Below are positions 1-35,199 of a stretch of DNA of 35,199 nt, piece by piece (positions within the stretch are counted from its first letter, which is position 1; every line of letters starts with the position of its first letter). This DNA comes from Lachnospiraceae bacterium. GTDB lineage: Bacteria > Bacillota > Clostridia > Lachnospirales > Lachnospiraceae. The stretch covers positions 1 through 35,199 of the forward strand of contig JAILRO010000056.1 of assembly GCA_024698145.1 (NCBI GenBank). Direction: 5' to 3'. The notes under the pieces were generated by a model. That model worked only from the letters and a program-made list of their open reading frames with translations, did not search any database and had not been told where the DNA came from. A program made the position numbers and the translations under genes.

Positions 1-87
1 AATTATGTTGCAGTATCCATAAGCAGGTCCTCTTTGACCGCCGGTACTTAGTGAGTACGTAGTACGAACTTAGTACCGTTGCGCTCA
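1..87. repeat. Exact direct repeat with window end (35113-35199)
   Basis: Bases 1-87 are identical, base for base, to 35113-35199. Both lie inside copies of the structured repeat. An exact overlap that stops precisely at both contig ends is typical of a de Bruijn graph contig broken at, or looped through, a repeat. It is not by itself evidence of circularity. Confidence 0.95.
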
Positions 88-185
88 AAACGGGCGAAAG
101 CTTGCCTGCGTTGGAACTGCAATCATAAGAGACGCTTAAAACAATTAGAAGTTTCGCTCGTAAAATGTAACTAAACAGCAATTTA
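1..185 (+). repeat. 3' part of structured TIR repeat (copy C)
   Basis: This is the right-hand part of the repeat found complete at 14333-14907 and as a left-hand part at 34728-35199. It contains the second structural domain. TTGCAG at 8-13 pairs with CTGCAA at 117-122, GCAGG at 23-27 can pair with CCTGC further on, and there is an inner CGGTAC/GTACCG stem. The outer end, CAGCAATTT at 176-184, is the inverted repeat of the left terminus. It ends about 5 bases before the rnpA stop codon. No conserved ORF is present. Confidence 0.85.
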
Positions 186-190
186 GGAAA

Positions 191-541
191 TTAAGAGGAA
201 GCCTCTTCTGAAAAGATGTGATGCAGTTTAGCTAAATGAAGAAATGCACTCTCAATATCCCAATAGCTATGACCTTTAGAATTAACCCTTGCCACAATTA
301 CTATGTCATGACCGGTAGACAACTCATTAACATGTAATCTATAGGCTTCTCTAATCAATCTGGTGATTCTGTGACGGACAACAGAATTGCCCACCTTCTT
401 ACTAACAGATATCCCAAGTCTGTTAATCTCCAGATTATTGTCTGTTATATACATAACAAGATACTTATTAGCATAGGATATACCCTGTTTATATACATTT
501 CCAAATTCTAAACTGTTTTTTAAAGAAATTAATTGTTTCAT
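191..541 (-). CDS. rnpA: Ribonuclease P protein component
   Basis: 116 aa, the usual length for RnpA, the basic protein subunit that helps the RNase P RNA cleave 5' leaders from pre-tRNAs. The family signature is visible mid-protein as RLGISVSKKVGNSVVRHR followed by RLIREAYR, the basic RNR-like helix that contacts RNA. It starts with ATG at 541 behind a weak AAGG Shine-Dalgarno and lies 91 nt downstream of rpmH on the same strand, as in most bacteria. An intrinsic terminator in that gap probably lowers rnpA expression relative to rpmH. The usual next genes (yidD, yidC, jag) are not seen because the structured repeat and the window edge follow immediately. Confidence 0.97.
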   Translation of the reverse strand: MKQLISLKNSLEFGNVYKQGISYANKYLVMYITDNNLEINRLGISVSKKVGNSVVRHRITRLIREAYRLHVNELSTGHDIVIVARVNSKGHSYWDIESAFLHLAKLHHIFSEEASS

Positions 542-1264: not shown

Positions 1265-2632
1265 ATGAAAGAAACCCTTATCGAACAATGGGACAGAATA
1301 CTCAATATTCTCGAAGTTGAATATGATGTGCCTCTTATGATGATTAATACCTGGATAAGAGCACTTAGTATAGAAGAAGTAAAAGAAGATACTATTATTT
1401 TATCAATTGATAAGAAACTTGGTAAAAGAGGTATTGATTTTATTAATAAGAAGATGTACAACATTTATCTTGAATCCTCTATAGAAGCAATTCTTAACAA
1501 ACATTTTGATATATTATTCTGCGTAGAAGGAGAAGATATTTCTTCTGTTGGTAACAACGAAACCGGATATGACGGACATGTTCAAATGGAACTTGAGAGA
1601 AGTAATCTTAATCCAAAGTACACATTTGACACATTCGTTATTGGTGATAATAACAGACACGCTCATGCAGCATGTGTTGCCGTAGCAGATGAACCATCTT
1701 CCGCTTATAATCCATTATTCCTTTATGGAGGAGCCGGACTTGGAAAAACTCATCTTATGCAGGCTATAGCTCATCACATAATTACACACAATCCTAATCT
1801 TGAAGTTTTGTATGTTACAAGTGAGACATTTACTAATGAAGTAATTGAATCCATAAGAAAGAACAAGAGTGAAGAATTAAGAGCCAAATATCGTAATCTC
1901 GATGTTCTCTTAATTGATGATATTCAATTTGTAATAGGTAAAGATTCAACTCAGACAGAGTTCTTTAACACATTTAATGATCTTTATAATGCTTCAAAGC
2001 AAATTATTATATCCTCTGATAAACCTCCTAAAGAGATTGAAACATTAGAGGAAAGAATGAGAACCAGATTAGAATGGGGAGTTCCTATTGATATTCATGC
2101 TCCTGATTATGAAACAAGAATGGCTATTCTTAAGAGAAAACAGGAAATGGATCAAGTTGAAATTCCTGATGATATTCTCGACTACATTGCTAAGAATGTT
2201 GTTTCTAATATAAGAGAGCTTGAAGGAGCATTTAATAAGATAAGTATTTACAAAAGATTAGAAGGTAATCAGGAAGAACTTACAGTTTCCAAAGCAGAAG
2301 ATATTCTTAAGGATATCATCTCAACCAACTCTATTAAGGAAATAACACCTGATCTTCTTATTAAAGTTGTATCAGATCATACAAACATTCCTTATGATGA
2401 TATTATATCTTCAAAACGAAGTAAGGAAATTGCCACTGCCAGACAGATTGTTATGTATCTTTGCAGGAAATACTTAGACAGATATTCACTTGATCAAATT
2501 GGTAATGCTATAGGAGGCAAGGATCATTCTACTGTTATTCACGGTATAGAAAGAATAACAGGTCTTATAGAAACAGACTCTAATATGAAGATAACTATTG
2601 ATGAAATAGAAAATAAAATAAGCAACAGGTAA
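1265..2632 (+). CDS. dnaA: Chromosomal replication initiator protein DnaA
   Basis: 455 aa, normal for DnaA. The N-terminal ~80 residues are the oligomerisation/helicase-loading domain, followed by a short linker (~95-110). The AAA+ ATPase carries Walker A GGAGLGKTH (about residues 154-162) and Walker B LLIDDIQ. The C-terminal helix-turn-helix ends in the signature GGKDHSTVIHG, which reads DnaA boxes. It assembles on the boxes on both sides of its gene and opens the origin. The ATG at 1265 follows AAAGGAT. DnaA-box-like repeats begin at the stop codon, so the gene sits inside a bipartite oriC. Confidence 0.99.
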   Translation: MKETLIEQWDRILNILEVEYDVPLMMINTWIRALSIEEVKEDTIILSIDKKLGKRGIDFINKKMYNIYLESSIEAILNKHFDILFCVEGEDISSVGNNETGYDGHVQMELERSNLNPKYTFDTFVIGDNNRHAHAACVAVADEPSSAYNPLFLYGGAGLGKTHLMQAIAHHIITHNPNLEVLYVTSETFTNEVIESIRKNKSEELRAKYRNLDVLLIDDIQFVIGKDSTQTEFFNTFNDLYNASKQIIISSDKPPKEIETLEERMRTRLEWGVPIDIHAPDYETRMAILKRKQEMDQVEIPDDILDYIAKNVVSNIRELEGAFNKISIYKRLEGNQEELTVSKAEDILKDIISTNSIKEITPDLLIKVVSDHTNIPYDDIISSKRSKEIATARQIVMYLCRKYLDRYSLDQIGNAIGGKDHSTVIHGIERITGLIETDSNMKITIDEIENKISNR

Positions 2633-10763: not shown

Positions 10764-13496
10764 ATGAATAATTATAAAATTACGGATCTTATAGAATTGA
10801 ATATATTACAGGAAATACAAGATGCTTTTTCTAATCTTGTTGGAATGGCAGCACTTATTACTGATGCGGATGGTAATTTGATTACAAAGCCCTCTAATTT
10901 TAATGATTACTGCGCGTGTACACAGAAATCCGATATAGGATGCACAAAATGTACAGAGTGTCACAAAGAAAGTGCCAAAACCTCATATGAAAAAGGAATG
11001 TCTATTTCAAATGTATGCTTTGCAGGTCTTTCAGGTTATGCTGCACCGATTATTGTGAATAATGAAATAATCGGATGCTTTCATGGCGGACAGGTTCTGA
11101 CAAAAGAGCCTGACGAGGAAGAAGTTAGGAAAATTGCCAATGAAATAGGAGTTAATCCCGACGAATATTTTAAAGAAATTAAGAAAATCAAAGTTGTTGA
11201 TAAGCAGCAGGTTGATATGGCAATTCAATTCCTTGAAACATTTTCAAAGATTTTCTCGGATATTGCTGAAGGAAAGAATAAAACACTTCTTGCAAGCGAG
11301 GAAATTGCTCGTGCAGCTAAGATGAAAACAGATTTCCTTGCTAACATGAGTCACGAGATTCGTACACCTATGAACGCGGTTATCGGTATGGCGGAGATGG
11401 CACTTCGTGAGGATATTCCTAATACTGCAAGAGATTATATTATTCAGATCAAATCATCCGGAAGAGCATTGCTTGCAATAATCAACGATATTCTTGATTT
11501 TTCAAAAATCGAGTCCGGCAAAATGGATATTATACCAATTGAGTATGATTCTATGTCGATGTTTAATGATGTGTCAAATATTGCAATGACAAGACTTGTT
11601 GATAAAGATGTTGAACTTGATCTTGATATTACACCTGATCTTCCTGCAATGTTGTTTGGTGATAATATTCGTATAAGACAGATACTTATCAACCTTACTA
11701 ATAATGCAGTTAAGTTCACTAAGACAGGATCAATCAAGATAATTGTTGATTTTGAGCGTCAAGAGAACTCTATTGGAATCTTGAAGGTTGCTGTTAAGGA
11801 TACAGGTATCGGTATCAAGAAGGAAGATATGCAGAGAATTTTTGAATCCTTCCAGCAGGTTGACAGTACGAGAAACCGCGAGGTTGAAGGAACGGGACTT
11901 GGTCTTGCTATATGCCAGAATCTTCTTAAGCTTATGAATGGTTCACTCCATGTAGAGAGTGAATATGAGAAGGGTTCTTGTTTCTCATTTGAGATTCCAC
12001 AGATAATTGTTGATGCTGATGCAGCAATGGTTGTCAAAGAGCCTAAGAAATCCATTGCAATCAGCATGTTCTCTAACAAACTTCTTGCAGAAAGCTTTGC
12101 CAGAGATTCAGCCAAGCTTGGAGTTAAGGTCGTTAATCTTCCAAAAGATATGGACCTTGATGAATTATACACAGCAATTAAGAACAAGAATATCGATGCA
12201 ACATTATTCTTCTTCATAGAAAAAGAAAAGCTTACATTTAAGCGTAAGAAATTCATCAGAGAGCATCCGGAAATTATTGCCGTTCTTGTCGCAGACTTTA
12301 TTGCAGAGGCAAGGCCTTCGCTTTCTAACATGCTTATAGTTAAGAAGCCTCTTTCTGCAATGAATCTTTCTATGATATACAATCGTGAGAAGATATCATT
12401 TGCCGGAAGCCATAATGAAGATGATGATATTGACTATACAGCACCGGAGGCATGGGCACTTATTGTTGATGATAACGCGGTTAACCTTACGGTTGCAGAG
12501 GGACTTCTTGAGCCTCTTAAGATTAAGACAGCTACTGCTAATAGTGGAAAGGAAGCATTGAAGAAGACATTAGAGCGCCGATACGACCTCATTTTCATGG
12601 ATCATATGATGCCGGAGATGGACGGAATTGAGGCAACACAGAAGATAAGAGAATTAAGAGAAGGTTACAAGGATGTTCCTATAATTGCACTTACTGCTAA
12701 TGCGGTGGGTAACGCAAGAGAAATGTTTCTTGAAGCAGGACTTAATGATTTTATTGCCAAGCCGATAGAGGTTAGAACTCTTCTTACAAAGGTAAAACAG
12801 TGGCTTCCTAAGGATAAGGTAGTTATGATGTCAGAGGAAGAACGCAAGGAACGTATGGAAGAGAGAAGGGACCCTGAAGAACTTACTGAAGAGAATATTG
12901 AGAAGGAGACCTTAGAGATTGATGATCTTGATATTAGCGGTGCAATAAGACTTCTTGGTTCTGAGAAGCTTTTCTGGAGTGTACTTAAAGAATACTATCG
13001 TGTTATCAAATCAAAGACAGAAACGATTAGAAAGTATTATGCTGAAGAAGATTGGCAGGCATATACAATAGAGGTACATGCTCTTAAGAGTTCTTCAAAA
13101 CAGATAGGCGCTTTGGAACTTTCTGCCATGGCACTTGATCTTGAGATGGCAGGTAAGGAAAAACGAATAGATTTCATCAGAGCAAATACCGAAAAAGCAT
13201 TGGAAAAATATATGTCGTATGAGCCGATTTTTGCCCCGTATTTTGAGGAGGCAGAAGAAAATGCAGCAGACAAACCGCCTATTAGTAAAGACGTGTTGAT
13301 AAATCTATTTGCAAAAATTAAAGAGGCACTTGATGATCTTGACATGGATACAGCGGAAGGTGTTTGTAATGAGCTGGACAAATACAGCTATTCCGATAAC
13401 CAGAAGGATTACCCGAAGAAAATAAGGTCAGCATGTGATGATATCGATGTTGATCAATGCCTTGAAATAATTAGTGATTGGGAAAAGATTATATGA
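10764..13496 (+). CDS. PocR-domain hybrid sensor histidine kinase (HisKA–HATPase–REC–Hpt)
   Basis: About 910 aa from the ATG at 10764, preceded by GGGGTG. Residue numbers here count from that ATG. The N-terminal ~165 residues match the PocR ligand-binding domain (clustered Cys in YCACTQ and CTKCTECHK, then GYAAPIIVNNEIIG). No membrane segment is seen, so sensing is probably cytoplasmic. Then come HisKA with His197 (MSHEIRTP), HATPase (LTNNAVKFT, DTGIGI, GTGLGL), a receiver-like segment lacking clear acceptor residues (~425-545), a canonical receiver (DDN, then LIFMDHMMPEMDG) and an Hpt domain with His772 (VHALKSSSKQ). It encodes a full phosphorelay in one chain. It lies 29 nt after the double-receiver gene and overlaps fumA by 4 nt (ATGA). 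Confidence 0.92.
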   Translation: MNNYKITDLIELNILQEIQDAFSNLVGMAALITDADGNLITKPSNFNDYCACTQKSDIGCTKCTECHKESAKTSYEKGMSISNVCFAGLSGYAAPIIVNNEIIGCFHGGQVLTKEPDEEEVRKIANEIGVNPDEYFKEIKKIKVVDKQQVDMAIQFLETFSKIFSDIAEGKNKTLLASEEIARAAKMKTDFLANMSHEIRTPMNAVIGMAEMALREDIPNTARDYIIQIKSSGRALLAIINDILDFSKIESGKMDIIPIEYDSMSMFNDVSNIAMTRLVDKDVELDLDITPDLPAMLFGDNIRIRQILINLTNNAVKFTKTGSIKIIVDFERQENSIGILKVAVKDTGIGIKKEDMQRIFESFQQVDSTRNREVEGTGLGLAICQNLLKLMNGSLHVESEYEKGSCFSFEIPQIIVDADAAMVVKEPKKSIAISMFSNKLLAESFARDSAKLGVKVVNLPKDMDLDELYTAIKNKNIDATLFFFIEKEKLTFKRKKFIREHPEIIAVLVADFIAEARPSLSNMLIVKKPLSAMNLSMIYNREKISFAGSHNEDDDIDYTAPEAWALIVDDNAVNLTVAEGLLEPLKIKTATANSGKEALKKTLERRYDLIFMDHMMPEMDGIEATQKIRELREGYKDVPIIALTANAVGNAREMFLEAGLNDFIAKPIEVRTLLTKVKQWLPKDKVVMMSEEERKERMEERRDPEELTEENIEKETLEIDDLDISGAIRLLGSEKLFWSVLKEYYRVIKSKTETIRKYYAEEDWQAYTIEVHALKSSSKQIGALELSAMALDLEMAGKEKRIDFIRANTEKALEKYMSYEPIFAPYFEEAEENAADKPPISKDVLINLFAKIKEALDDLDMDTAEGVCNELDKYSYSDNQKDYPKKIRSACDDIDVDQCLEIISDWEKII

Positions 13497-14335
13497 GAAC
13501 AATTCATACAGACATAATAACAGATAACGTAAAACAAATGTGTATAGAAGCCAACCTTCGTCTTTCGGATGATGTTAAGGGTGCAATCGAAAAAGGAGCA
13601 CAGGAAGAGGAAGGTGAGCTTGGACGCAAGATTCTTTCACAGTTATGTGAAAACATGGACATTGCCGATAAGGAAGGAATTCCTATTTGTCAGGATACCG
13701 GAATGGCAGTGTTCTTTGTCAAGGTTGGACAAGACCTTCATATAGAAGGAGCCAATCTTACAGATGCAATAAATGAAGGTGTAAGACAAGGTTATACAGA
13801 GGGATATTTGCGTAAGTCGGTTGTTGGTGATCCTTTGCTTAGAGAGAACACCAAGGACAATACACCTGCAATAATTCACTATGATATTGTACCCGGAGAT
13901 AAGTTAGAAATACTTATTGCTCCTAAGGGTTTTGGCTCAGAGAACATGAGCAGATTGTATATGCTAAAACCCGCTGATGGAGTTGAAGGTGTCAAAGATG
14001 TAATATTACAGACTGTTCGTGAGGCAGGACCGAATGCATGTCCGCCGGTAGTGGTTGGTGTAGGAATAGGTGGAGATTTTGAGAAATCTGCAATTCTTGC
14101 AAAGAAGGCTTTGACACGTAATCTTAATGAGCATTCTAATCTTTCACATATACGTGAGATTGAAGAGGAAATGCTTACAAAGATTAATTCTTTGGGAATC
14201 GGTCCGGGAGGACTTGGAGGAAGAACTACAGCGCTTGCTGTTAACATCGAAACATATGCAACACATATTGCCGGACTTCCGGTTGCAGTTAATATGTGTT
14301 GTCATGTGAACCGTCATGTGCGACGAATCTTGTAA
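13493..14335 (+). CDS. Fumarate hydratase class I, alpha subunit (Fe-S)
   Basis: 280 aa from ATG at 13493, the usual size for the alpha chain of two-subunit Fe-S fumarases or tartrate dehydratases. These interconvert fumarate and malate (or related hydroxyacids) with a [4Fe-4S] cluster. Conserved segments are PICQDTGMAVFFVK, YLRKSVVGDPL, GFGSENMSRL, CPPVVVGVGIGG, GIGPGGLGGRTTALAV and a terminal Cys-His segment. The start overlaps the kinase stop codon as ATGA with little Shine-Dalgarno, indicating translational coupling. No beta-subunit gene is next to it. Its TAA stop (14333-14335) is the first three bases of the structured repeat. Confidence 0.93.
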   Translation: MRTIHTDIITDNVKQMCIEANLRLSDDVKGAIEKGAQEEEGELGRKILSQLCENMDIADKEGIPICQDTGMAVFFVKVGQDLHIEGANLTDAINEGVRQGYTEGYLRKSVVGDPLLRENTKDNTPAIIHYDIVPGDKLEILIAPKGFGSENMSRLYMLKPADGVEGVKDVILQTVREAGPNACPPVVVGVGIGGDFEKSAILAKKALTRNLNEHSNLSHIREIEEEMLTKINSLGIGPGGLGGRTTALAVNIETYATHIAGLPVAVNMCCHVNRHVRRIL

Positions 14336-14907
14336 ATTGCTGTTTAATGCACTTTTATATATGACGGACGCGTAAGGATTACCAGATACATGAATATCCT
14401 GTATCCAGGTGAAAGACGTCAAGAGTTTGTAAGTATGCCGGCTACGTTTTCTTATAATACGCGACCGGCTATGGATTCGACATCCTGTCTCAACATGCCT
14501 TGCCTGACATCCATGTCAGGCATTCGCTTATGTACTCACGGCATACCAACAAACTCTAGGCGTCTTTCAGATGTCACAGGATATTACATGCACAGATAAT
14601 CCCACGCTGTTTCGTTATATGTATAAAGTGCATCAAAGCAGCTGATGCGAGCCACAGGCGAGTCGCGTGCCGCCCCCTATGTTGTACATGCGAAACTTGG
14701 AAAAAGTATATTATGCGTTTCGTGTGATTACAGCTTCCATAAGCAGGTGCTCATAAAACGCCGGCACTTAGCGAGTACAAGGTACGAGCTTAGTACCGTT
14801 GCGTTCTTATACGCAGCGAAAGCGGCCTGCGATGGAACTGTAATCATAAGAGACGCCTTAAAACAATTAGAAGTTTCGCTCGTAAAACTTAACTAAACAG
14901 TAATTTA
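14333..14907 (+). repeat. Complete ~575-bp structured TIR repeat (copy A)
   Basis: Fills the whole gap between convergent fumA and panB. Terminal inverted repeats are TAAATTGCTGTTTA at left and the inverse of TAAACAGTAATTTA at right, extending imperfectly to about 26 bp. Domain 1 (about 14370-14610) is a long nested hairpin. Its layers are GCGT/ACGC, GGATTA/TAATCC, AATATCCTG/CAGGATATT, GACGTC/GGCGTC, GAGTTTGT/ACAAACTC and GTATGCCG/CGGCATAC. Inside is a separate 10-bp stem, TGCCTGACAT/ATGTCAGGCA. Domain 2 (about 14714-14857) is closed by GATTACAG/CTGTAATC. Many stems keep pairing in the other copies despite base changes. There is no transposase, and the internal ORFs are not conserved between copies. 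Confidence 0.9.
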
Positions 14908-15732
14908 ATAAAGCTTCGACAATACATCATCATCAATGGTGTATTCATGCTTTGTTTCAGGAAATGTACCTGCTTTGACTTCTTTGTCATAGTTTGCAAA
15001 TGCTTCCTTCATAATCTCTCCGATATCAGCAAAGCGCTTAACAAACTTCGGCGTAAAGTCAGAGAACATTCCAAGCATATCCTGATAAACAAGCACCTGG
15101 CCGTCACATACATTACCTGCTCCGATTCCGATTGTCGGAATTGAAAGTTCCTTTGTAACTATCTCTGCAATTTTAGATGGAACACACTCAAGTACTACTG
15201 CAAATGCTCCTGCTTCTTCAAGAAGCTTTGCATCTTCTATTAACTTTTTAGCAGCAGCTTCAGTCTTTGCCTGAACCTTAAAACCACCAAAAGCATTAAT
15301 AGACTGAGGTGTAAGACCAAGATGTCCACAAACAGGAATACCGCAATTAACGATTGCACGTACCTGCTCTATAATCTCTTTTCCACCTTCAAGTTTGACC
15401 GCCTGAGCACGTCCTTCTTTCATAAGACGTCCAGCATTGACAACTGCATCATACACATTGGTCTGATAGCTCATAAACGGCATGTCACACACTACAAGTG
15501 CATTCTTGGCACCACGTGCAACCGCAGCACAATGATGAATCATATCCTCCATGGTTACAGACAATGTATCTTCATATCCCAAAATAACATTGCCCAATGA
15601 ATCACCGACAAGAATCGAATTAATCCCTGCTTCATCAATCAATTTGGCAGTTGAATAATCGTATGCCGTAAGCATTGTAAGCTTCTCGCCCTTTTCCTTT
15701 GCCTGCTTATATGTCATAACCGTATTTTTCAT
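14905..15732 (-). CDS. panB: 3-methyl-2-oxobutanoate hydroxymethyltransferase (ketopantoate hydroxymethyltransferase)
   Basis: 275 aa, standard PanB length. It adds a hydroxymethyl group from 5,10-methylene-THF to alpha-ketoisovalerate to give ketopantoate, the first committed step to pantothenate and CoA. Family segments include [30 protein letters not shown] (metal-binding Asp), [30 protein letters not shown] and PTIGIGAG. The ATG at 15732 follows GGAGGCG. It lies 49 nt downstream of the DUF2520 gene, probably in one transcript. panC and panD are not in the window. Its TAA stop (14907-14905) coincides with the terminal three bases of the structured repeat. Confidence 0.97.
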
Positions 15733-34727: not shown

Positions 34728-35199
34728 AAATTGCTGTTTAATGCACTTTTATTCCTAACAAACGCGTATAGATTATCTGATGTATGAATATCCTGTTTCC
34801 AGGTGAAACGTACTAAGAGGTTGTAGGTATGCCGACTACACTTTCTTATAATACGCGACCGGCTATGGATTCGACATCCTGTCTCAGCATGCCTTGCCTG
34901 ACATCCATGTCAGGCATTCGCTTAGGTACTAACGGCATACCAACAACCTCTAAGTACCTTTCAGATGTCACAGGATATTGCACACACAGATAATCTCACG
35001 CTGTTTCTTCATGTAGGAAATTGCATCCAATCAGCTGATGTGAGCCGAAGGCGAGTCGCGTGCCGCCCTCTATGTTGTACATGCGAAACTTCAAACCGTA
35101 TATCAGGCGTCGAATTATGTTGCAGTATCCATAAGCAGGTCCTCTTTGACCGCCGGTACTTAGTGAGTACGTAGTACGAACTTAGTACCGTTGCGCTCA
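34728..35199 (+). repeat. 5' part of structured TIR repeat (copy B)
   Basis: Left-hand ~472 nt of the same element as copy A, in the same orientation, cut by the window end. The terminus AAATTGCTGTTTA matches copy A. The nested helices are kept with different bases: AGATTA/TAATCT, CGTACT/AAGTAC, GAGGTTGT/ACAACCTC, plus the unchanged TGCCTGACAT/ATGTCAGGCA stem. Joined to 88-185 it would give a full element of about 570 bp. The ORFs seen in copy A are stopped early here, so it is not protein coding. Confidence 0.88.
35113..35199. repeat. Exact direct repeat of window start (1-87)
   Basis: Identical to bases 1-87. It lies in the second structural domain of repeat copy B and ends exactly at the last base of the window. 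Confidence 0.95.

What the first reader, a model, noticed from the sequence alone, without database searches (positions are those of the whole stretch)
14333..14907. A ~570-bp structured, terminal-inverted-repeat element in at least two locations, of no family I recognise
One complete copy (14333-14907) and two part copies (34728-35199 and 1-185) share the same ends, the same order of helices and the same two-domain layout. By eye, about four fifths of positions are the same. The element fills gaps between genes, carries no transposase and no conserved ORF, and folds on paper into a very long nested hairpin plus a second compact domain, with its two ends pairing. That size and order fits a large structured non-coding RNA or a structured non-autonomous mobile element.
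Basis: partly seen in the sequence, partly recalled or inferred. Interest (0 to 1): 0.85.

Follow-up and report, generated by a model that had tools for sequence, protein, structure and literature searches.

The report
Paired-hairpin mobile repeat in Lachnospiraceae
A repeated stretch of DNA in a bacterium of the Lachnospiraceae family is a two-part hairpin element: one half is a known but unexplained RNA motif that looks like a binding site for the regulator CsrA, the other half is a structured motif absent from the RNA family database, and in relatives the same parts are scattered through the genome, in some species as small jumping elements.

Summary
The two "part copies" are the ends of one contig, whose first and last 87 bases are identical. 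The left half is a known Rfam family, TwoAYGGAY (RF01731, 87.6 bits against a threshold of 43), on the minus strand. The right half ("R") matches no Rfam family. A covariance model of R matches 100 of 200 genomes of the own family and 11 of 391 of the class, all 11 in that family. T (TwoAYGGAY) and R modules sit alone or as head-to-head pairs: 29 of 30 close pairs in four other genera are divergent, as in the window; I chose these four genomes because pairs were visible in them. In sister species R lies in 210-bp elements with terminal inverted repeats, and 9 of 13 copies read have direct repeats of 8-13 bp; an IS1182-like transposon has the same ends. The own genome lacks that transposase, and its composite has other ends. 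T co-occurs with CsrA (34 of 35 genomes against 74 of 165). Best reading: a modular, non-autonomous, REPIN-like repeat carrying CsrA-decoy-type hairpins. The role of R is unknown.

The parts
14333..14907 (.). complete composite element, between the fumarase stop codon (TAA 14333-14335) and the stop codon of the convergent panB-type gene (14905-14907)
14337..14346 (+). left terminal inverted repeat, end type A (TTGCTGTTTA followed by ATGCAC)
14894..14903 (-). right terminal inverted repeat, end type B (TTACTGTTTA followed by GTTAAG, read on the minus strand; one mismatch to the left end)
14408..14571 (-). T module: TwoAYGGAY RNA motif, RF01731, 87.6 bits; tip of the long left hairpin that spans about 14333-14641
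14507..14516 (-). CsrA-consensus-like site ACATGGATGT in the first terminal hairpin of the T module
14480..14488 (-). CsrA-consensus-like site ACAGGATGT in the second terminal hairpin of the T module (3-nt GGA loop; the loop scan needs a longer loop and does not count it)
14740..14830 (+). R module: new structured motif, model R1, 73.7 bits; tip of the second hairpin domain (about 14680-14892)
34728..35199 (.). copy cut by the contig end: A end, T module at 34802-34965 (-), R fragment at 35147-35199 (+)
8..185 (.). copy cut by the contig start: R module at 20-109 (+, 79.2 bits) and B end; bases 1-87 of the window are identical to its last 87 bases

Best explanation
The element is a modular, non-autonomous repeat. 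It consists of two structured hairpin modules placed head to head between short inverted ends: T (RF01731 TwoAYGGAY) on the minus strand and R (new) on the plus strand. Shown: copy number, modular make-up, covariation, divergent pairing in the genomes examined, restriction of R to one bacterial family in the genomes searched, and, for the R-only form in sister species, ends shared with an IS1182-like transposon and direct flanking repeats. Inferred: such elements are copied in trans by a DDE transposase of an insertion sequence that need not persist, settle between genes, and recombine with each other. Inferred, supported by co-occurrence and by sites: when transcribed, T tips present GGA hairpin loops that bind and titrate CsrA. 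The function of R and the reason for the divergent orientation are not known.
For: Own genome: at least 40 loci. Sister species: R elements of 209-212 bp (one of 192) with ends TAGGYAATTGCGAAAC; 9 of 13 distinct copies have exact direct repeats of 8-13 bp (counted by eye). The same ends bound a 1770-bp transposon with a 502-aa frame and direct repeat TCATTTTAACC (L260) and a comparable one in G002 (504 aa); both proteins are IS1182-like. R model: 249 cells with changes on both sides against 94.6 +/- 8.6 shuffled, and at most 84 in slid controls. R1 in 100 of 200 family genomes. Head-to-head in 29 of 30 close pairs. T with CsrA 34 of 35 against 74 of 165, p 1.8e-9. GGA hairpin loops in 52 of 52 T modules on the RNA strand; 51 CsrA-like sites there, 0 on the opposite strand. 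R orientation random to neighbouring genes: 43/42/19/16 of 120.
Against: The IS1182-like transposase (one 105-aa piece, E up to 1e-10) was found in 4 of 26 genus genomes, not in the own genome and not in several genomes rich in these ends (G004, G008, G012, G015, G020). The exact 16-base end is absent from the own genome; 2 of 11 single own R copies have ends within 4 mismatches. The window's composite has other ends and no direct repeats that I could see; I ran no search for a transposase with those ends. Four of 13 R elements show no clear direct repeat, and 20 paired modules of other genera show neither TIR nor direct repeats of note. The four genomes were chosen after seeing pairs in them, and G207 shows a tandem T pair. 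T and R1 are not clearly associated across genomes (23 of 35 against 77 of 165, p 0.06), and R1 lay near T in 1 of 12 T loci. T and CsrA may both track motile lineages; no control gene was run. 13 of 52 T modules also have a GGA hairpin loop on the opposite strand. Weak promoter-like sites only. Wobble counts give no consistent RNA strand.
Confidence: 0.55

Rival explanations
1. REPIN/BIME-type repeats: inverted doublets of palindromes spread by a Y1 (RAYT, HUH) transposase that acts on single-stranded hairpins.
For: Between genes, multicopy, hairpins, inverted doublets; REPINs show the same layout, 93% of 430 doublets inverted (PMC3116915, passages read).
Against: No PF01797 match in the own genome; 24 of 44 genomes with at least 10 R1 matches lack it; no positive association (53 of 100 genomes with R1 against 62 of 100 without). 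The modules are far larger than REPs.
Confidence: 0.1
2. Functional RNA genes or cis-regulatory RNAs kept for the host, not mobile DNA: a dispersed set of CsrA sponges (T) and an unknown riboregulator (R).
For: Conservation and covariation of the tips; GNRA loop in 120 of 144 modules examined (129 matched the hairpin pattern); T-CsrA co-occurrence; 11 of 24 element ends of G002 match element ends of G000.
Against: Random orientation to genes and to GC skew, 58 against 50; the space between paired modules can be as short as 71 bp including both inner arms, which leaves little room for two promoters; R sits in TIR elements with direct repeats; 16 to 77 R1 matches per genome in four genomes.
Confidence: 0.22
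3. DNA-level palindromes whose arms are kept complementary by template switching or arm-to-arm conversion, or by a need for cruciforms; the RNA fold is incidental.
For: Arms differ between copies but stay self-complementary: 0.82 within a copy against 0.51 between copies for 22 T modules of G127, 0.75 against 0.62 for 20 R modules of G101. G.U and A.C mismatches are about equal: 67:65 in 86 representatives, 6:7 and 15:13.
Against: CsrA-like sites in T and GNRA loops in R lie on one strand; inner arms of R show a G.U excess, 61:34 in 83 representatives.
Confidence: 0.2
4. Bidirectional terminators or 3'-end structures for convergent genes.
For: 27 of 77 listed ends have a stop codon 3-8 bp before the TTGCTGTTTA core (a few of the 77 are chance motif hits).
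Against: The one terminator-like site found in 1 kb lies outside the element; R also lies between divergent genes (16 of 120).
Confidence: 0.06

Closest known systems
TwoAYGGAY RNA, Rfam RF01731
   Same: The left half is a member by score (87.6 and 90 bits, threshold 43).
   Different: Listed as a probable RNA, probably not cis-regulatory (one table row seen in PMC2864571) and proposed as a CsrA-binding RNA (passages of PMC4333381). Here it is one module of a repeated, often paired element.
REPINs and GTAG/CGTC-tagged REPs (PMC3116915, PMC3733652; passages seen)
   Same: Multicopy hairpins between genes, singlets and inverted doublets, including doublets of unlike units.
   Different: Modules of about 90-170 nt instead of 20-40 bp; no Y1 transposase in the own genome; R matched in one Clostridia family only; the words Firmicutes and Clostridi- do not occur in the text of PMC3733652.
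MITEs of IS1182-like insertion sequences
   Same: R-only elements in sister species share their 16-base ends with a transposon that encodes an IS1182-like transposase, and 9 of 13 have direct repeats of 8-13 bp.
   Different: The window's own element has other ends; the transposase is absent from the own genome and below the NCBIfam IS1182 cut-off (77 and 71 against 270 bits).
CsrB/RsmZ-type CsrA-sequestering RNAs (recalled; also named in PMC4333381)
   Same: GGA in hairpin loops, more than one site per RNA.
   Different: Dispersed repeats in Clostridia, without identified promoters; binding untested.
Large structured RNAs ROOL, GOLLD, OLE, raiA
   Same: Size of about 570 nt and extensive pairing only.
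   Different: No Rfam match to any of them; two separable modules on opposite strands.

Membership tests
Rfam RF01731 TwoAYGGAY | covariance-model score at or above the gathering threshold of 43 bits | tested here: met
   87.6 and 90.0 bits over the full model, 1-168
Rfam RF01731 TwoAYGGAY | GGA in the two terminal loops on the RNA strand | tested here: met
   At least one GGA hairpin loop in 52 of 52 modules, at least two in 38 of 52 (3-nt loops are missed by the scan); opposite strand: at least one in 13 of 52, CsrA-like sites 0
REPIN | inverted doublets of palindromes between genes | tested here: met
   29 of 30 close pairs divergent in four chosen genomes; 4 R modules inside an ORF against 120 classified between genes. 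Many modules are single
REPIN | associated RAYT (Y1_Tnp) transposase | tested here: not met
   PF01797: none in the own genome; 24 of 44 genomes with at least 10 R1 matches lack it
IS1182-type MITE | ends shared with an autonomous element, and target duplication | tested here: not met
   Not met for the window's element (other ends, no direct repeats seen). Met for R-only elements of sister species, with direct repeats in 9 of 13
IS1182 family (transposase of L260 and L261) | NCBIfam NF033551 cut-off of 270 bits | tested here: not met
   70.7 and 77.3 bits: related, not a formal member
CsrA-sequestering sRNA | binds CsrA and lowers its activity | not testable with these tools
   Only sequence sites and co-occurrence with csrA
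CsrA-sequestering sRNA | transcribed from its own promoter | tested here: inconclusive
   6 weak promoter-like matches in 1 kb, not all inside the element, against 2.5 +/- 1.7 in shuffles
ROOL/GOLLD/OLE/raiA | match to the Rfam model | tested here: not met
   cmscan by threshold over the window and by E-value up to 5 over 14300-14950

The most novel reading that the evidence does not exclude
An unrecognised class of mobile element of Lachnospiraceae: interchangeable structured hairpin modules (T, R) with variable but self-complementary arms, assembled as head-to-head pairs. It moves without a Y1 enzyme by borrowing DDE transposases, and it carries decoys for the host regulator CsrA, so that a selfish repeat is tied into host gene control. 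R would be a second, undescribed decoy or docking module for another host factor.
Probability: 0.25. Interest if true: 0.85.

Novelty: new variant of a known kind. Interest (0 to 1): 0.66.

Why it matters
It gives a long-standing orphan Rfam motif a genomic setting and a testable partner: in the genomes sampled TwoAYGGAY is almost confined to those with csrA. It adds a structured motif without an Rfam 15 match that occurs in half of the sampled genomes of a major gut family. The divergent pairs and the co-varying arms pose a clear question: is DNA or RNA under selection? Practically, these repeats break assemblies (30 of 40 own loci lie at contig ends) and lie at rearrangement points.

Tried and rejected
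Large single ncRNA: rejected, no Rfam match and two separable modules. Phage or plasmid carriage: no match in phages or plasmids, and 0 exact matches for the R core in viral contigs. Y1/RAYT spread: rejected for the own genome. Cis-regulation with fixed orientation: not supported (ORFs were called by length only, and modules without a neighbour on both sides were dropped uncounted). Replication-strand preference: none, 58 against 50. Strand of selection from wobble counts: contradictory (full arms 153:118 in all 159 and 67:65 in 86 representatives; inner arms 108:68 in all 137 and 61:34 in 83; model pairs: outer helix 26:9, central helix with its base 13:47); left open. Independent promoters between paired modules: little room in the shortest pairs. 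Empty site of the window element: an ORF start that I take, from recall, for fumarase beta is visible just after fumarase alpha in 11 of 15 relatives other than G002, but the own lineage is rearranged there, so no clean empty site was obtained. Literature for a prior description of R: searches listed nothing relevant (listings only); most subscription papers are not held, so this is weak evidence of absence.

Full report
The observation. The element at 14333-14907 is real. It has inverted ends (TTGCTGTTTA, one mismatch on the right), folds with z-scores of -13.1 (plus strand) and -10.6 (minus strand) against 100 shuffles, and fills the gap between two convergent genes whose stop codons lie at its borders: a fumarase gene (stop 14333-14335) and a panB-type gene (stop 14905-14907). 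The own genome (2.89 Mb, 71 contigs) has 51 matching pieces, a lower bound since 40 of 85 candidates were scored. They merge into 40 loci, 30 of them within 200 bp of a contig end. The window is a whole contig and its first and last 87 bases are identical. The two part copies are therefore assembly breaks inside the repeat, and some of the 40 loci are halves of one element. Of 40 genomes searched, own included, 17 match, all in the own genus (17 of 24; none of 16 others).

The left half is known. Rfam 15 gives TwoAYGGAY, RF01731, on the minus strand at 14408-14571 (87.6 bits) and 34802-34965 (90.0 bits); its threshold is 43 bits. Earlier work listed it as a probable RNA that is probably not cis-regulatory (one table row of PMC2864571) and proposed that it binds CsrA (passages of PMC4333381).

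The right half has no Rfam 15 match (18 and 8 further loci). Its core is CGNCGGYACTTRRYGAG - loop - CGARYTTAGTACCGYNNCG followed by a small hairpin. By their titles most are Lachnospiraceae, Butyrivibrio, Agathobacter and other Clostridia; three, from one isolate, are titled Bacteroides. From 56 sequences I built model R1. In that alignment 249 cells change on both sides of a pair and stay paired, against 94.6 +/- 8.6 in shuffles and at most 84 in slid controls; 18 of 28 pairs have such changes (shuffles 15.3, reached by 4 of 500). The pattern fixed parts of the central helix, so the unbiased evidence is in the outer helix (6 of 6 pairs), the small hairpin (2 of 2) and the base of the central helix; in that base up to 29 of 56 sequences fail to pair at one position. 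The small hairpin's loop is GNRA in 120 of 129 modules that fit the hairpin pattern; 15 of 144 did not fit.

Distribution. R1 matches 100 of 200 genomes of the own family, 99 of 199 genera. In a draw of 391 genomes of the class it matches 11 at a stricter limit, all in the own family. RF01731 matches 35 of 200 family genomes and 0 of 14 controls. In four genomes searched more deeply (G101, G221, G127, G049) R1 has 77, 53, 16 and 22 matches and RF01731 8, 4, 31 and 7. Across the 200 genomes T and R1 are not clearly associated (23 of 35 against 77 of 165, p 0.06).

Paired layout. In the window T is on the minus strand and R on the plus strand, head to head. Pooling the 200 modules printed for those four genomes (18 R1 matches were not printed), 30 neighbouring pairs lie within 700 bp: 29 are divergent (TT 11, RR 10, TR 6, RT 2) and one is tandem; a rough chance expectation is about 3 close pairs of any orientation. 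I had chosen these genomes because pairs were visible in earlier listings, so the frequency of pairs is biased upwards; the orientation is the informative part. A tandem T pair is visible in G207. Most modules are single; R1 lay within the flanks of 1 of 12 T loci.

Mobility. In sister species the R module forms elements of 209-212 bp (one of 192) with ends TAGGYAATTGCGAAAC. Counting by eye, 9 of 13 distinct copies have exact direct repeats of 8-13 bp outside them, e.g. GACATAATAAAG and GTATATACTATT; 4 have none that is clear. The 16-base end occurs in 19 of 24 genus genomes and not in the reversed control; it has no exact match in the own genome, where 2 of 11 single R copies have ends within 4 mismatches. 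A decayed 902-bp copy (L228) and a 1770-bp copy with an open 502-aa frame (L260, flanked by TCATTTTAACC) share these ends; G002 has a comparable copy with a 504-aa frame and no exact direct repeat. The protein is IS1182-like but below the family cut-off (77 and 71 bits against 270), with a DUF772 domain. A search with one 105-aa piece found it in 4 of 26 genus genomes, not in the own one and not in several that are rich in these ends. Trans-mobilisation is thus supported for the R-only form, with a transposase that has been lost from most genomes or replaced. For the window's composite it is not shown: its ends differ, I saw no direct repeats in the 23 copies listed, and I ran no search for a transposase with those ends. 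Recombination between copies may have removed such traces: 11 of 24 element ends in G002 match element ends of G000; G002's L083 joins a flank of L071 with a flank of L001, and the two flanks of L074 lie at two different G002 elements.

Arms. The outer arms differ between copies, yet each copy pairs with itself: 0.82 within a copy against 0.51 between copies for 22 T modules of G127, 0.75 against 0.62 for 20 R modules of G101. Wobble counts do not settle which strand is selected: G.U to A.C is 67:65 in 86 representatives (which includes some chance flank alignments), 61:34 in inner arms of 83, 39:56 over the model's pairs, and 6:7 and 15:13. GNRA loops and CsrA-like sites favour one RNA strand; the arms do not. 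Orientation is random to genes (43/42/19/16 of 120 classified, 4 inside an ORF) and to GC skew (58 against 50).

How it probably works. T shows at least one GGA hairpin loop on its RNA strand in 52 of 52 modules (13 of 52 also on the other strand), and 51 sites like the CsrA consensus (consensus recalled) against none on the opposite strand. In the 35-kb window 4 of 5 such sites lie in the two T modules. CsrA (PF02599 over cut-off) is present in 34 of 35 genomes with T against 74 of 165 without (p 1.8e-9); for R1 the link is weaker, 70 of 100 against 38 of 100. The genomes come from 199 genera, but no phylogenetic correction and no control gene was run. I infer that T tips titrate CsrA when transcribed. 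For R no partner is known.

Known kinds. The layout works like REPINs, inverted doublets of palindromes between genes (passages of PMC3116915 and PMC3733652). It is not a REPIN by membership: Y1 transposase is absent from the own genome and from 24 of 44 genomes with at least 10 R1 matches. Searches for a prior description (listings only) showed none. I rate it a new variant of a known kind, with the R motif and the head-to-head pairing as the new parts.

Noticed in passing
window 191-541 (-) and 1265-2632 (+): An rnpA-type and a dnaA gene lie at the start of the window, so the contig end with an R module is next to the presumed chromosomal origin.
   Followed up: no
window 13478-14335: The fumarase gene is followed by the element, whereas in 11 of 15 relatives other than G002 an ORF that looks like the fumarase beta subunit (recalled) starts just downstream. 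In G020 an R-like element, and in G006 possibly another repeat, sits at this spot.
   Followed up: partly
element ends in G000 and G002 (L001-L093): 27 of 77 listed ends have a stop codon 3-8 bp before the core TTGCTGTTTA, and others lie just upstream of start codons, so the elements often take up the whole intergenic region.
   Followed up: partly
L001/L083, L016/L093, L018/L080: The same flank abuts an A end in one species and a B end in the other, suggesting inversion or exchange of elements at fixed sites.
   Followed up: no
L232, L233, L237, L252: The TAGGYAATTGCGAAAC ends also bound much shorter elements of 36-99 bp.
   Followed up: no
alignment A2, columns 28 and 60: One central pair of R alternates between U-A and C.A (16 of 56 sequences) without compensation; unexplained.
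   Followed up: no
window 14645-14896 (+): An 83-aa open frame lies inside the element; conservation not tested.
   Followed up: no
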